Assembly (NCBI RefSeq): GCF_002865645.1
Contig: NW_020194685.1
Coordinates: forward strand, 682,001-746,000
Reading direction: 5' to 3'
Length of the DNA stretch: 64,000 bases
Origin: Hyaloscypha bicolor E
Taxonomy: Eukaryota; Ascomycota; Leotiomycetes; Helotiales; Hyaloscyphaceae
Part shown: piece after piece, positions 29,251 through 42,274 of the stretch
How positions within the stretch are numbered: position 1 is the stretch's first letter
How the letters are laid out: each line of letters begins with the position of its first letter
Made by a program: the position numbers and the translations under genes
The notes under the pieces: generated by a model
Database searches by the model: none
Seen by the model: the letters and a program-made list of their open reading frames with translations, nothing else
Told to the model about the DNA's origin: nothing

Positions 29251-29555
29251 ATCGGCCGTGGCTCCCTTGCAGAAAGCCACCGGAATCAATTCATCAGTTT
29301 GTGCGGGGAAAGCCGTAAATTTTGTCAGAGGACTCGGCGCCGCAAGATTCGTGCGAGCACAGTTCAGGCAGAAGAGGATGATTGTAGAAGTGGAAATGTT
29401 TTGGATCAGAGAAGGGAAAGTCCTTGATGAACCGAGGGAGGAGGGAGGGAGGCTCACCTCATCTCAGGGTCCGTCCAACTTGGCGATCTTCGTGCGCCGG
29501 AAGCGGTTTAGTGCTGAGGGTAGAAAGCTTATTCGTAGATCGGCACTTCTCGTTC

Positions 29556-29755
29556 TCTCCTCTCCTCTTCTCTCCTCTCCTCTTCTCTCCTCTCCTCTTC
29601 TCTCCTCTCCTCTTCTCTCCTCTCCTCTTCTCTCCTCTCCTCTTCTCTCCTCTTCTCCTCTTCTCTCCTCTCCTCTTCTCTCCTCTCCTCTTCTCTCCTC
29701 TCCTCTTCTCTCCTCTCCTCTTCTCTCCTCTCCTCTTCTCTCCTCTTCTCTTCTC
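29556..29755 (+). repeat. 15-bp pyrimidine-only tandem repeat, about 13 copies
   Basis: Unit tctcctctcctcttc repeated in near-perfect register for about 200 bp, with one shortened unit around 29652. One strand is entirely C/T and the other entirely A/G. Every frame is open through it, which creates artefactual proteins made of LLSSP or RREE-type repeats; none is called. Mirror-symmetric polypurine-polypyrimidine DNA of this type can form triplex (H-DNA) structures. Confidence 0.9.
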
Positions 29756-30535
29756 CGGATCTGATCTGATCAGGGGCCAGCAACCGTTTGAGGACAGGGC
29801 TGCCGAGGGCTGCAGGGCCCTCCGCGCATAGCACACTATTGTATTCTTCTGCAAATGGCGACAGAAACGAGTGCTGAACCAACAGACTCTCACTCTAATT
29901 GGCGGCTAATTGACCAGATCACATTGAGGACAGCCACTTGCGCGTGAGCGAGATCTCCCGGGTCAGTCATGCCCTCGCGAGCCCAACGATTCGGCACACC
30001 TGAATTTCTTCAGCGTTCCAGGCACATGGCAGTCTGCTTCAGGATGTGCCCCCTCTTGTGAGACCGAGCACCGCAAGAAAATATAAGAGAAGTAGAGTGC
30101 CACGCCCATTTTTTATGTTTGTTGGCTTTCTCTCCATGTTCCCCCTTTGCTCCGGAAAGTCTCGAGACTCCAACACAGAAAGTGCTATGCAGGCATGGTA
30201 ATCTGCTGTGTGCGAGCCATTTATTTCGTAGCCATATTGGCTGTTGCTCGTTGATGATAAGATGCTTTCTTCCTGCTTTTAATCCAAACATAATTAATTT
30301 TGTTCATCGCTCCTTCCTAAACTACCTGAGCATCATACCTTTTCACGTGACCCACGTCATTATCTCAGTCGGCCTTCGAAGCTTTTCACCTTCAGAAATA
30401 TCCATACAGATCAGTCCACTCCTGGGAATGGTTCTGGCCTGAATACATGCGCGCAACACGAACTTGGGAATAATATAATGGAAGTGCGACCAAGAACGAC
30501 AACCTCCCTTCTGTTTCAGTTGCCACATTTTCCCA
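29756..30535. other. Intergenic region upstream of the GH92 gene
   Basis: No gene is supported in this 780-bp stretch. A CACGTG hexamer (ttCACGTGac) lies near 30344-30349, about 190 bp upstream of the GH92 start. Otherwise nothing was recognised. Confidence 0.4.
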
Positions 30536-33500
30536 ATGTGTCTTTACGCTTCCCTGACAGTCTTATTGGTGGCTGCTGCCAGAGCAGAACCAACAGACCT
30601 TACTCAATATGTCTTGACCAATGTACATTGTACCCTGCAAAACATGTAGATTGCCAGCTGACACCTTCTAGACTGGGCAGACAAATGGAGGGAACACCTT
30701 TGCAGGAGTCACCCTACCCTTTGGTATGGTGAAGCTAGGTCCTGACATGTTTTTTGGAGCGGATTCCTACTCTGGAGATGTCAATGTCGGCAATTTCACG
30801 GGATTCTCCATGATGCACGAGAGTGGCACTGGTGGAGCTCCAAAGTATGGAGTAGTCAGTCAAATGCCTGCCCTGGGAAATATCACCAATCCTCTGGCAA
30901 ATTTGAATGATACCAGAGCTTCTCCGGATATTGCCTCTGTCGGGTACTACAAAGCCTCCCTCGGGTCTAGGATTACGGTCGAACTCGGTGCGACAAGTCG
31001 AGCAGGATTTTACCAGTATACTTTCCCAGCAGGAAATCAGTCAAACGTTGTAGTGGACATCTCCCATGTTCTTCCTTCATATCGTGGTCAAGGCCTATCA
31101 CAGCACTATCTTGGAGGAAATATCACCACTTCCAGTGACCACTACGAAGGACATGCAGATTACGACAATGGATGGAATCGAGCACCCGACTGGAGAATTT
31201 TTTTCTGCGCATTTTTCGAGTCCAATACCTCTGCGACTGTTAATACATTTATCGGACAGAACGATAACACTAGCAAGCTGGCTGATTATAGCACTGCTTC
31301 AAATATCAACTCCACTGCTCGTCTGGGGGCTGTTTTTTATTTTGGCAATGCAACCAGCGTTACTTCCAGAGTTGGAATCTCCTTTATATCCACTGCCCAG
31401 GCATGTGACAATGTCAATACACAGATACCAGCTGGAACAACACTCTCAACTTTGACCAGGAACGCAAAGCAAGTCTGGAACGGCGAGGTGCTGTCCAAAG
31501 TAACAACAGCTGAATCCAATCTGAGCAACCTGCAATTACTGTACAGTTCGATGTACCACATGCATCTCCTACCTTCAAACAGAACAGGGGAAAACCCTCT
31601 CTGGACCTCCACTGAACCCTATTATGATGACGTCTATACGTCCTGGGATCTTTTTAGATGCACTTTTGCACTACTGCAGGTCTTCCAGCCAAGGATGTAT
31701 GAAGAGTACATCAGATCGCTCATCAACATCTTCCGATTCGAAGGCTATACGCCGATGCTCGGTCGTCCAATTTCAATGGCGCCAGTCAGGGTGGCTCGAA
31801 TTCGGATAACATCTTGGCTGACGCCTACATTAAAGGAGTTCGTGGAGCTGTGAACTGGAATGATGGATACAAGGCAATGCAAAAGAATGCAGAAGTGACT
31901 CCACCAAACAATAACGACCCTCGTGATCTATCTTCTTCGACTAAAGAGGGGCGAGGAGCACTCCCAGATTGTAGGTATTTGGGGAGAAACCTTTTCCTAT
32001 TACGGACTGTTTCATGAGTTTCTCCTAAGACAATGTCCTCTCCCGAAAAAATCTTAATCTAGAAATGCTAACTCCCCCGTTACCCAGGGCTTGAACTTGG
32101 ATACATAACTCCAAGATACGGTCGCGCTGTTACTCGAGCCGTTGAGTATTCCGTCAATGACTTCTCGCTCTCCCAGGTTGCAGCCGGGCTTGGAAAAAGT
32201 CCCGACGTCAGGAAGTACATTGATCGATCTCGGAATTGGCGAAACCATTGGAGCCCGGAGGCGACCTCTCTCAACTTCTTCGGCTTCATTGTTCCTCGCA
32301 GCAGAGATGGATTTATTGAGCAAGATCCCCTGCAATGCGGCGGTTGTTATTGGGGTGATGCATATTATGAAGGTTTACCTTGGAAATATAGCTTCAACAC
32401 CCATCACGACATCAACACCCTGATTGCACTTTCCGGTGGACCAGAGACCTTCGTCAAACGCCTAGATATGATGTTTACGCCCAATATCACTAGCCGCAAT
32501 GCCGCATTCAACAGCACAATCTTCAATCCTGGAAACGAGCCCAGTTTCGCAACCCCATATCTGTACAATTATGTTGGTCGCCAAGATCTCAGCGTCAAGC
32601 AAAGCCGAAACATTGCAAAAAGTTACTACAGCCCTACTCCGGGGGGTCTGCCCGGAAACAGCGACGCAGGAGCAATGGAATCCTGGCTCCTCTGGAACAT
32701 GCTTGGACTTTACCCAATGGTCGGCCAAACAACGTTTCTCATCGGCTCACCCTGGTTCGCCAACACTTCCATCTCCCTTGGAGGCGGCAAATCCCTCACT
32801 ATGACCACGACTGGCGGTTCCAATGACTCGTACTACGTACAAACTCTCCACGTAAACGGAAAACCGTGGACGCAGTCGTGGGTTACATGGGACCAGATAT
32901 TCGCCAAGGGTGGAACGATGGACTTCGTGTTAGGGCACGAGCCGAAGAATTGGACGACGGGGCCACCACCCCCGAGTCCGGCGAGTGAGCATAGCCAGTA
33001 TACGAATTCAAGCATTATTGTTAGGCCAGGAGAGGTCCCAATGGCGCCTAGTGCTGCAGTGCTGTCAAAGGAGGCGCACAGGAGCAAACTCTTGAGAGAT
33101 GTGGCATTGGGGGTTATGGGGTTTGTGGTTTTGGGGTTATTGGTTTTGGCGGGGTGGTTGTGGTGGTATTGGGTGAGGAAGGCGAGGACAGTTGCTGAGG
33201 AGCAAGAGACGGGCCAAGAGAAAGCATTTACTAGGCTCGGCAAGCTTGTTACCGTGAGAGGAAGCTCGCAGATCATGGTCAGAGGAGCTCAAGACCAGCT
33301 CACGCACCTCTTCAAGAAGAGGTCGATATCGACGAAAGAGGCAGGCCGACCAAAGAGTGTGGACGACAGTATCGGTGGCGAGACAATCATTGAAAACGAT
33401 GGCGAAATACAAATCAGCAAGAAGAAAGAGCTAAGAGTATTGGTTCTTGAAGCTTATGATCAAGAGCCTGAACCCGCTGAGCCTTGGACACCGAGGGGTA

Positions 33501-33547
33501 CGAATCGACGAATTCATGATATAGCTGAGGAAAGGACGGAGTCATGA
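30536..33547 (+). pseudogene. GH92 alpha-1,2-mannosidase-like protein with one frameshift
   Basis: Glycoside hydrolase family 92 member, expected to act on alpha-mannosides outside the cell or in the secretory pathway. Exons are 30536-30622 (signal peptide MCLYASLTVLLVAAARA), 30672-31970 and 32088-33547. The sum is one base short of a multiple of three. The missing base lies near 31754, where YTP should continue as DARSSNFNGASQGGSN but reads into another frame; with it the product is 948 aa. Family landmarks are NGGNTFAGVTLPFGMVKLGPD, YYEGLPWKYSF (acid/base Glu region) and LPGNSDAGAMESWLLWNMLG. In the last, the Asp pair known from bacterial GH92 (GNDD) reads NSD, as I believe is usual for fungal members. 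A transmembrane segment at about 798-822 gives a type I anchor. Intron 2 is a repeated introner-like sequence. The lesion may be real or a sequencing error. Confidence 0.8.
31971..32087 (+). repeat. Introner-like intron, copy 1 (in the GH92 gene)
   Basis: A 117-bp intron with donor gtaggt, a ctaac branch motif and acceptor acccag. It splits a Trp codon (t/gg) between ALPD and LELGYI. From end to end it matches the intron at 40900-41017 on the minus strand, including an identical 26-nt run (32023-32048 versus 40966-40941) and an identical gactgtttcatgag. The flanking exons of the two genes are unrelated. Confidence 0.85.
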
Positions 33548-40579: not shown

Positions 40580-41804
40580 CTACTTCTTCGACGTCAGCAG
40601 CCTCCGCTTTTCGAGCTCCCACTCCACCGCCTCTTTGATGATGGAGTCATGATCTGCAATGGGATTGAAATGAAGGCGCTGTCGTGCTTTTTGAGTGTTA
40701 TATGTATGTGTATTAACACAATATGTCATTGAAGTTTTGCTGACAGACACTGGTGGTTCCTTACTCCCAAGCGTAAAGATCCAGTATATCCACCCCACAA
40801 TGAAAGCGGTGACAAGTGCAGTCCACTTTGGCAAGATGGTAACATCCACGAGGTCATCCCGATGCCGGCCACGAGCGATGGTCCAGATTAAGCGTGCGTC
40901 TAGGTAACGGGGGAAGTCAGCAATTGCTCAATTGGGATTGTTTCGGGAGAGGACATTGTCTTAGGAAATCTCATGAAACAGTCACAAATAGGAAAGGATT
41001 TCTCCCCCAACACCTACGGTACCAGAATGGTATTGCTACTCCATCTGAGATGATGAAAGCTTCTCCGTCGACCTTTCCAGAGGCACGACTGGGGTTCAAG
41101 AGAGCTTTGGCAGCGAGAATATGGGCCGTCGCCGCGTTCTCGATCCACAAAATTTCAACGAGATTTTTGCCGTCTCCGATCTGGAAAGGCTTCTGATTTC
41201 CTGGGCATGCATTGAGAGTACCAGGGATGGTTTGACTATCCCTAACGCCGTATGAATGTGCCATGACGAGGCGGACAGTTGGGAGACTTGGGGCGTTGGC
41301 AGCGCCGACAATTTTATCAGCCATGGCTTTGGTGCGACCATATTCCCAGGTCTTGGATGATGGATTCCAGAGCTTTTGGCTCTCATCAACGTTGAAATGC
41401 GGGGAATCGGCGTAGGCATCTACTGTCGAGCTGAAGACAAAAGCTCTCACCGACGAGCATTCAGATCCGCTGGTGAGTAAGATTTCTGTACCTTTAACGT
41501 TCGTTTCGTATTGGTCTACTTTCCCGCCCGTAGGAAAACTCGGATTGGGGCTGGCAGTATGAAAAATGACACGGGGCTTGATTTCTTGGAATAATGAGTC
41601 CACTTTGGTCGCATCTGTGATGCTACCCTGAATGTAGGTCGCTCCGTCATGACGATTAGACTCGATGTCACGATCCAAAACGTAGACAGGACCGCACTCT
41701 GGATCCTGTAGCAGGTCGCGGACAAGATAGAACCCTAGAAATCCACATCCGCCGGTGACTAGGACTGTGTCGAGCAGGGGCGAGGCGCGCGTTGATGGGG
41801 CCAT
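40580..41804 (-). CDS. 3-beta-hydroxysteroid dehydrogenase / sterol-4-alpha-carboxylate dehydrogenase-like protein (Erg26 paralogue)
   Basis: NAD(P)-dependent short-chain dehydrogenase of the 3-beta-HSD family. Two exons, 41804-41018 and 40899-40580, join in frame to 368 aa. The nucleotide-binding motif is VTGGCGFLGFYLV near the N-terminus and the catalytic YxxxK is EYGRTK. The C-terminus keeps the FW..ARLIWTIAR motif across the splice junction, followed by a hydrophobic anchor (TALVTAFIVGWIYWIFTLG) typical of ER-bound sterol enzymes. The exact substrate is uncertain: a paralogue of Erg26, or a secondary-metabolite enzyme. The only intron (118 bp) is a copy of the introner-like sequence also found in the GH92 gene. 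The ATG at 41804 was chosen over an in-frame upstream methionine at 41912. Confidence 0.82.
40900..41017 (-). repeat. Introner-like intron, copy 2 (in the 3-beta-HSD gene)
   Basis: A 118-bp intron with donor gtaggt, branch region gctgac and acceptor acctag. It aligns end to end with the GH92 intron at 31971-32087, with donor and acceptor coinciding with the ends of the similarity. Both copies lie in the sense direction of their host gene. Roughly four fifths of positions agree by eye. Confidence 0.85.
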
Positions 41805-42274
41805 CTTTTTGGATTCTTGGCCGAGGCGTTTCAAAATTGAGATGTATATATCAAACGTAGTATAATATGTCGAAGGGAGGGGACAAACCATATATGCCCA
41901 CGTCTCCAACAAATGGAAGTGCTAGCCAACTATGAAGCAAGAAAGGATGGGATCGTCAGACGGAGCTGAACAGAACAGAGCAAGGGCACCAATCAGAACA
42001 CTGAAAGCTGCCCACGACTAAGTAATATGAGAATGTAAAGTTTAGCACTCTTCCATTGAAACAGAATAATGGAGTGAAGCTTGAAATGAGGGAGTGCTGG
42101 TAAAATTCACCAGCCTATTTCTTATCAGCCACGTGACCGGATTTAAACTTCGTGAGCAAACTCGCGACGAGAGGTCAACTTGGACAAACGCCGTGCAACA
42201 ACAATGATCCTTTGAACTTCATCGCAAAATCGCCTTTGGCGAACCCCTAATCCAGTGCCACAGTCCTTACCAAG

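What the first reader, a model, noticed from the sequence alone, without database searches (positions are those of the whole stretch)
31971..32087. Introner-like element: the same intron in two unrelated genes (copy in GH92)
The second intron of the GH92 gene (117 bp) aligns from donor to acceptor with the only intron of the 3-beta-HSD gene at 40900-41017 (118 bp, opposite strand). An exact 26-nt match (32023-32048 to 40966-40941), identical gactgtttcatgag, the same gtaggt donor and the same cccccgttac before the acceptor are visible. The flanking exons are unrelated, both copies are sense-oriented, and the similarity ends at the splice sites. This is what introner-like elements, reported in Dothideomycete fungi, look like: introns multiplying as mobile units. 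This family may be undescribed.
Basis: partly seen in the sequence, partly recalled or inferred. Interest (0 to 1): 0.88.

Follow-up and report, generated by a model that had tools for sequence, protein, structure and literature searches.

The report
Introns copying themselves into fungal genes
A fungus, probably of the order Helotiales, carries at least 77 related copies of one roughly 118-base predicted intron in dozens of different genes, and related copies tend to sit beside the same exon base, so the intron likely spreads as a mobile element, probably by way of its RNA, that is choosy about where it lands.

Summary
The GH92 intron (31971-32087, +) and the 3-beta-HSD intron (40900-41017, -) are 84% identical from donor to acceptor. 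The 82-Mb genome holds at least 85 related places. In 77 copies with readable ends the unit runs from GT to AG, with a branch-site motif in 73. In 67 of 77 the copy-sense spliced frame is longer than the antisense one. Relatives carry uninterrupted frames at both window sites and a paralogue gives an empty site in DNA: insertion is seamless, without target duplication. This is an introner-like family, in a fungus closest to Helotiales (Leotiomycetes) rather than Dothideomycetes. Unusual: insertion favours T|G and C|A sites, and the first downstream exon base follows the element's phylogeny (p 0.0002), more weakly the last upstream base (p 0.003), while positions further out do not. At four sites these bases appear to predate insertion. 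Likely mechanism: reverse splicing of excised intron RNA into exons; DNA transposition without target duplication is not excluded. Splicing was not tested with RNA-seq.

The parts
31971..32087 (+). Introner copy A (117 nt) in the GH92 gene; flanks ATT|GGC
   Evidence: 84% identical to copy B from donor to acceptor; 40 genome-wide matches
40900..41017 (-). Introner copy B (118 nt) in the 3-beta-HSD-like gene; flanks ACC|ACG
   Evidence: empty site in P0121, intron read into in P0127
32068..32072 (+). Predicted branch site CTAAC of copy A, A 16 nt before the 3' end
   Evidence: CTRAY motif within 40 nt of the 3' end in 73 of 77 copies
31971..31987 (+). 5' near-terminal inverted-repeat arm of copy A
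   Evidence: pairs with the 3' arm in 94.7% of 569 cells over 41 copies, no more than shuffles
32071..32087 (+). 3' near-terminal inverted-repeat arm of copy A
32088..33544 (+). GH92 coding sequence downstream of copy A (frame from 32090)
   Evidence: 485-aa query matches GH92 proteins (PF07971)
41018..41807 (-). 3-beta-HSD-like coding sequence upstream of copy B, from ATG
40580..40899 (-). 3-beta-HSD-like coding sequence downstream of copy B, to stop

Best explanation
These are copies of an introner-like element, a predicted spliceosomal intron of about 118 nt present at 85 or more places in this fungus, which likely multiplied by insertion of excised intron RNA into exons (reverse splicing or a close variant). 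Shown by the calls: copies with readable ends run from GT to AG and nearly all carry a branch-site motif; the frame spliced in the copy's own sense is the open one in most; homologues or a paralogue carry uninterrupted coding sequence at the insertion point in four host genes, with nothing gained or lost; there is no target-site duplication; insertion is biased to T|G and C|A sites; and the exon base just downstream follows the element's phylogeny. Inferred: that the copies are spliced in the cell, that an RNA is the intermediate, that targets are hit while transcribed, and that the element influences which downstream base is accepted.
For: Family size and ends. Spliced-sense frame median 180 aa against 84 antisense and 71 unspliced, and 137-144 with the acceptor moved by 1-2 nt. 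Domains cross the junction in 9 of 10 host proteins scanned. Gap-free homologues within 5 residues of the junction: 113 of 114 spanning (GH92), 114 of 118 (HSD), 120 of 120 (host of L006). Empty site in DNA in the L019 paralogue of the L056 host. No TSD. Site bias and its inheritance along the element tree. Branch motif.
Against: No RNA-seq. In 10 of 77 copies the sense frame is not longer than the antisense one, and only 47 of 77 beat both one-base acceptor shifts. The inverted ends could be those of a DNA element. A pairwise test of flank inheritance was not significant (p 0.33 at -1, 0.17 at +1), the tree is weakly resolved (10 of 74 inner branches starred), and in the 38 younger copies the -1 signal is only p 0.06. 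Reverse splicing does not by itself predict a subfamily-specific downstream base.
Confidence: 0.6

Rival explanations
1. A small non-autonomous DNA transposon with inverted ends that carries both splice sites and is inserted at preferred dinucleotides without target duplication by an enzyme supplied in trans (Helitron-like or similar; this comparison is recalled), kept mostly where it is spliced out.
For: Near-terminal inverted repeat; strong short target preference, with T|G and C|A being reverse complements of each other; subfamily-linked target; the survey in PMC9860276 finds most introner families consistent with DNA transposition (abstract and passages).
Against: No TSD at any of 21 offsets; sense-coding bias (67 of 77); no longer relative was met among the hits, but none was searched for beyond the DNA and pattern queries.
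Confidence: 0.22
2. Intron RNA or DNA captured during repair of double-strand breaks in genes, as proposed for Hypoxylaceae stwintrons.
For: Seamless insertion and near-terminal inverted repeat as in that proposal (PMC8469720 passages; PMC12403724 discussion).
Against: That model is said to place introns at random sites; here sites are biased and the bias follows subfamilies.
Confidence: 0.12
3. Ordinary duplication of genes that already held the intron.
For: Some host genes are related and share the intron position: L013/L047/L050, L014/L018/L042, L074/L090 (with junctions).
Against: Only 10 pairs of flanks among 77 copies match at the protein level, one of them inside a single locus; the other hosts are unrelated by that test.
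Confidence: 0.03

Closest known systems
Introner-like elements of Dothideomycetes (Fulvia fulva, Dothistroma septosporum; PMC4457414 abstract, methods and first part of results; van der Burgt 2012 known only through citations)
   Same: Near-identical introns multiplied in unrelated genes; seamless; several families per genome reported; some genes with two copies
   Different: Different class of fungi; sequence relationship untested; strong T|G / C|A site bias linked to subfamily, whereas integration there is described as seemingly random (as cited in PMC8469720)
Sister stwintrons and cropped sister introns of Hypoxylaceae and Xylariaceae (PMC8469720 abstract, first part of results, section 3.6, passages; PMC12403724 abstract, discussion)
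   Same: Near-terminal inverted repeats; no TSD; seamless coding insertions
   Different: Here a single canonical intron, not a nested pair; those authors report no base bias at the insertion site, here the bias is strong
DNA-transposon introners (PMC9860276 abstract, one section, passages)
   Same: Multiplying introns; inverted ends
   Different: No TSD and both splice sites on the element; that paper states that ascomycete families have no TIRs or TSDs, while this one has TIR-like ends

Membership tests
Introner / introner-like element | Closely similar introns over their whole length at unrelated positions | tested here: met
   77 copies with readable ends; 10 matching pairs of host flanks among them
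Introner / introner-like element | Similarity ends at the splice sites | tested here: met
   9 fragmentary hits were set aside
Introner / introner-like element | Sense orientation in genes | tested here: met
   spliced sense frame longer than antisense in 67 of 77; no annotation to classify the other 10
Introner / introner-like element | Recent gain: relatives lack the intron | tested here: met
   P0005 for GH92, P0121 for HSD as uninterrupted frames; paralogue of L056 in DNA; other copies not tested
Introner / introner-like element | Spliced in the cell | tested here: inconclusive
   P0001 matches the spliced GH92 product, but transcript or intron-free allele is unknown; no RNA-seq
Fungal ILE | No target-site duplication | tested here: met
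   |z| at most 2.4 over 21 offsets, 77 copies
Fungal ILE | Stable secondary structure (recalled) | tested here: inconclusive
   z -1.73 and -3.04 for copies A and B; terminal stem without covariation
Published ILE sequence families (cf01, cf02 and others) | Sequence homology to the published consensus | not testable with these tools
   Consensus sequences lie in figures and supplements that were not readable here
[D1,2] sister stwintron | Element begins with an external donor G followed by an internal GT donor | tested here: not met
   The base before the GT is T or C in 66 of 77 copies, G in 8
DNA-transposon introner (MITE-like) | Terminal inverted repeats | tested here: met
   Imperfect near-terminal repeat, 94.7% of cells paired
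DNA-transposon introner (MITE-like) | Target-site duplication, often supplying a splice site | tested here: not met
   both splice sites lie in the element

The most novel reading that the evidence does not exclude
A spliceosomal intron that chooses its own landing base: each subfamily of the element dictates, through its own sequence, which exon base (G, A or a pyrimidine) it accepts just downstream of the insertion point, a spliceosomal counterpart of the single-base exon contact of group II introns (that comparison is recalled).
Probability: 0.2. Interest if true: 0.88.

Novelty: new variant of a known kind. Interest (0 to 1): 0.66.

Why it matters
How new spliceosomal introns arise is a long-standing open question. 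This family offers many copies, some up to 98% identical, in one fungus, with uninterrupted genes in relatives. The landing base is partly inherited along the element's phylogeny, which makes models testable: neither random break repair nor a fixed proto-splice site predicts it. It also points to introners in a Helotiales-like fungus: full-text searches for introners with Leotiomycetes found 0 papers and 'introner-like' with Helotiales found one on another subject (passages). That library lacks most subscription papers, and the supplements of the large introner survey were not readable, so the family may be listed there.

Tried and rejected
Terminal stem as a conserved RNA structure: pairing is high but equals shuffles, and RNAalifold prefers other pairs; left unproven. 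A covariance model was built but could not be used on the own genome. Target-site duplication: none. A guide base inside the element: the best column fits some clades (C with +1 G, T with +1 A, G with +1 pyrimidine) and fails in two others, so no single column is claimed. The flank table of six clades was drawn after seeing tree and flanks; its chi-square is descriptive only. A pairwise test of flank inheritance (pairs of 88% identity or more) was not significant at -1 or +1; the tree tests were. Flank bases carried along with the element: not supported at four sites, where conserved codons or a paralogue show the bases already there. The core motif in viral contigs: 0 matches. Literature searches. 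Papers seen: PMC4457414 (abstract, methods, part 1 of 2 of results), PMC8469720 (abstract, part 1 of 3 of results, section 3.6, passages), PMC12403724 (abstract, discussion), PMC9860276 (abstract, one section, passages), PMC11889510 (passages); all others as listings only.

Full report
WHAT WAS CHECKED. The two introns were read directly. A local alignment joins 31971-32087 (+) to 41017-40900 (-) with 100 identical of 119 columns and 3 gaps, beginning at the donor GT and ending at the acceptor AG; the 350- and 360-base stretches compared share no other match. A core 25-mer occurs only at these two places in the window, none being expected by chance.

GENOME-WIDE FAMILY. The window lies in an 82.0-Mb assembly of 76 contigs. 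DNA searches with copy A and copy B each returned 40 matches, 40 being the number scored of 57 and 73 candidates. The 60 loci laid reduce to 44 distinct places. Pattern searches with a 5' 28-mer, a central 26-mer and a 3' 23-mer at up to 3 mismatches gave 42, 44 and 71 hits, against 0 for each pattern read backwards. These and the unlaid rows add 41 places, so at least 85 in all. Of the 41, 40 were fetched (the one at C71:628415 was not), and a profile of 41 exact copies hit each of the 40 loci at E 0.01 or better. Copies with readable splice ends number 77, the ends of five being set by hand; nine hits were dropped as fragmentary or lacking a clear end. The 41 copies of alignment A1 have a mean column identity of 86%. 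Among 67 copies pairwise identity reaches 98.3%, with a median of 76%: some fairly young copies and an older, decaying background.

ANATOMY. The consensus runs GTAGGTGTTGGGGGAGAAACCCTTTCCTATTT ... GACTGTTTCATGAGATT ... CCTAAGACAATGTCCTCTCCCGAAACAATC ... GCAATTGCTGACTCCCCCGTTACCTAG. Length is 117-119 nt in 50 of 77. A CTRAY branch motif lies within 40 nt of the 3' end in 73 of 77 copies, its A usually 16 nt from the end. Near the ends lies an imperfect inverted repeat, TAGGTGTTGGGGGAG against CTCCCCCGTTACCTA: 94.7% of 569 cells pair in 41 copies, no more than with shuffled partners (94.6%), so it is conserved but without covariation. Folds of copies A and B are somewhat more stable than shuffles (z -1.73 and -3.04).

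INTRONS RATHER THAN REPEATS AT LARGE. For 77 copies the flanks were joined at the predicted ends and the open frame across the junction measured, with up to 380 nt a side. The median is 180 aa in the copy's own sense, 84 aa in antisense and 71 aa unspliced. Moving the acceptor by 1 or 2 nt lowers the median to 137-144 aa. Sense exceeds antisense in 67 of 77, unspliced in 66, and both one-base shifts in 47. The 10 copies in which sense does not exceed antisense may lie near other introns, in UTRs or in non-coding DNA and were not resolved. Pfam domains cross the junction in 9 of 10 host proteins scanned (radical SAM, MFS, phosphoketolase, PEBP-like, TRI12, alpha/beta hydrolase, M28, M20 and PF09994); in the methyltransferase host of L024 the domain lies downstream only (junctions; 16 of the 26 prepared proteins were not scanned).

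EMPTY SITES AND EXACTNESS. For GH92, 114 of 120 listed homologues span the junction and 113 are gap-free within 5 residues of it; the exception, P0017, reads through at this point with 38 extra residues whose letters resemble the translated intron. P0001, from an assembly source, matches the exactly spliced window product over 526 residues at 99.8%, the difference being its start residue; whether it is a transcript or an intron-free allele is unknown. P0005, on a 22-kb contig, crosses the site in one frame. For HSD, 118 of 120 span the junction and 114 are gap-free, the four exceptions being distant homologues with small gaps. P0121 (87% identical, 15-kb contig) reads FWYHARL without interruption, while P0127 (98% identical) runs into the intron and stops. 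For the host of L006, 120 of 120 are gap-free. In DNA, the paralogue in L019 has TTCATCTTCGATCACACCATC where L056 has TTCATCTTCGACC|ATACCATC. At these sites insertion adds and removes nothing.

WHERE IT LANDS. No target duplication is seen: donor-side and acceptor-side bases agree no more than permuted pairs at any of 21 offsets, |z| at most 2.4. The flanks are nevertheless far from random. Ten copies with related hosts or uncertain ends were left out (L018, L027, L042, L047, L050, L059, L062, L081, L090 and the older copy in L093), leaving 67: T|G 27 (6.9% expected from the 150 nt on either side, p 1e-14), C|A 11 (7.0%, p 0.007), any pyrimidine|purine 45 (23%, p 2e-14). Before the intron, T is enriched (40 of 67), G and A are depleted (6 and 3), and C is not biased (18, p 0.67); the usual fungal AG|G (recalled) is thus not favoured. 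On a tree built from the elements alone, the +1 base changes 22 times against 32.0 in shuffles (p 0.0002, the smallest possible with 5000 shuffles) and the -1 base 19 times against 24.4 (p 0.003); positions -4 to -2 and +2 to +4 give p 0.05 or more (with 300 shuffles agrees, with p 0.0498 at +4). In the 38 copies that came from the two DNA searches, +1 keeps p 0.0002 and -1 falls to 0.06. A coarser test on pairs of 88% identity or more was not significant at either position. The tree of all 77 is weakly resolved, 10 of 74 inner branches starred. By clade the picture is +1 G in two clades and some early branches, +1 A in two clades (one with T and one mostly with C before the intron), and mostly +1 pyrimidine in one (clades chosen after seeing the flanks). 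Copy A is T|G; copy B is C|A, an exception within the pyrimidine clade. Where it can be judged, the flank bases were there before insertion: conserved Trp in GH92, His in HSD, Cys in the host of L006, and the paralogue's C|A for L056. No single element column explains the preference.

MECHANISM. Seamless, mostly sense-exonic insertion with both splice sites on the element and no TSD fits insertion of an excised intron RNA by reverse splicing, the model that others have favoured for fungal introners (as reported in PMC8469720). The break-repair proposal of the Hypoxylaceae authors predicts random sites, and they report no base bias. A DNA element without TSD is not excluded: the ends are inverted repeats and the target is a short dinucleotide. 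Against it stand the sense bias and the lack of a longer relative among the hits, which was not searched for in full. That subfamilies differ in the +1 base is not in the passages that I read; it suggests that the element influences target choice, by a means unknown.

WHO. The nearest named homologues of three host proteins include Monilinia laxa, Botrytis cinerea and Cudoniella acicularis (GH92), Stipitochalara longipes (HSD) and Chlorociboria aeruginascens (host of L006). Three of these were looked up and are Helotiales, Leotiomycetes.

LIMITS. Only the own genome could be searched for the element; counts are lower bounds; no RNA-seq, gene annotation or published element consensus could be consulted.

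Noticed in passing
window 31740-31800 (+): The GH92 host gene shows a frame break against its homologues upstream of copy A: the frame of 30672-31799 stops matching and the match goes on in another frame. P0001 also begins downstream of it. Pseudogene or assembly error is open.
   Followed up: partly
L093:179-423: Two copies lie head to tail with only GT between them (120 and 123 nt). Taking out both as one stretch keeps a frame that reads like a NACHT-type protein (by eye, recalled); both ways of splicing give a 185-aa open frame.
   Followed up: partly
P0017, GH92 homologue: In this close relative the introner is open in frame, so that the predicted protein reads through it with 38 extra residues; retention there would not cut the protein short.
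   Followed up: no
L017/L050 (G000:C73) and L013/L068 (G000:C24): Pairs of copies about 760 bases and 1 kb apart, possibly two insertions in one gene.
   Followed up: no
L027 (G000:C54, about 1822647): The host of this 3'-shortened copy looks like a SLU7-type splicing factor (by eye from the translation, recalled, not searched).
   Followed up: no
window 29501-29830: A long CT-rich simple repeat upstream of the GH92 gene, open in several frames.
   Followed up: no
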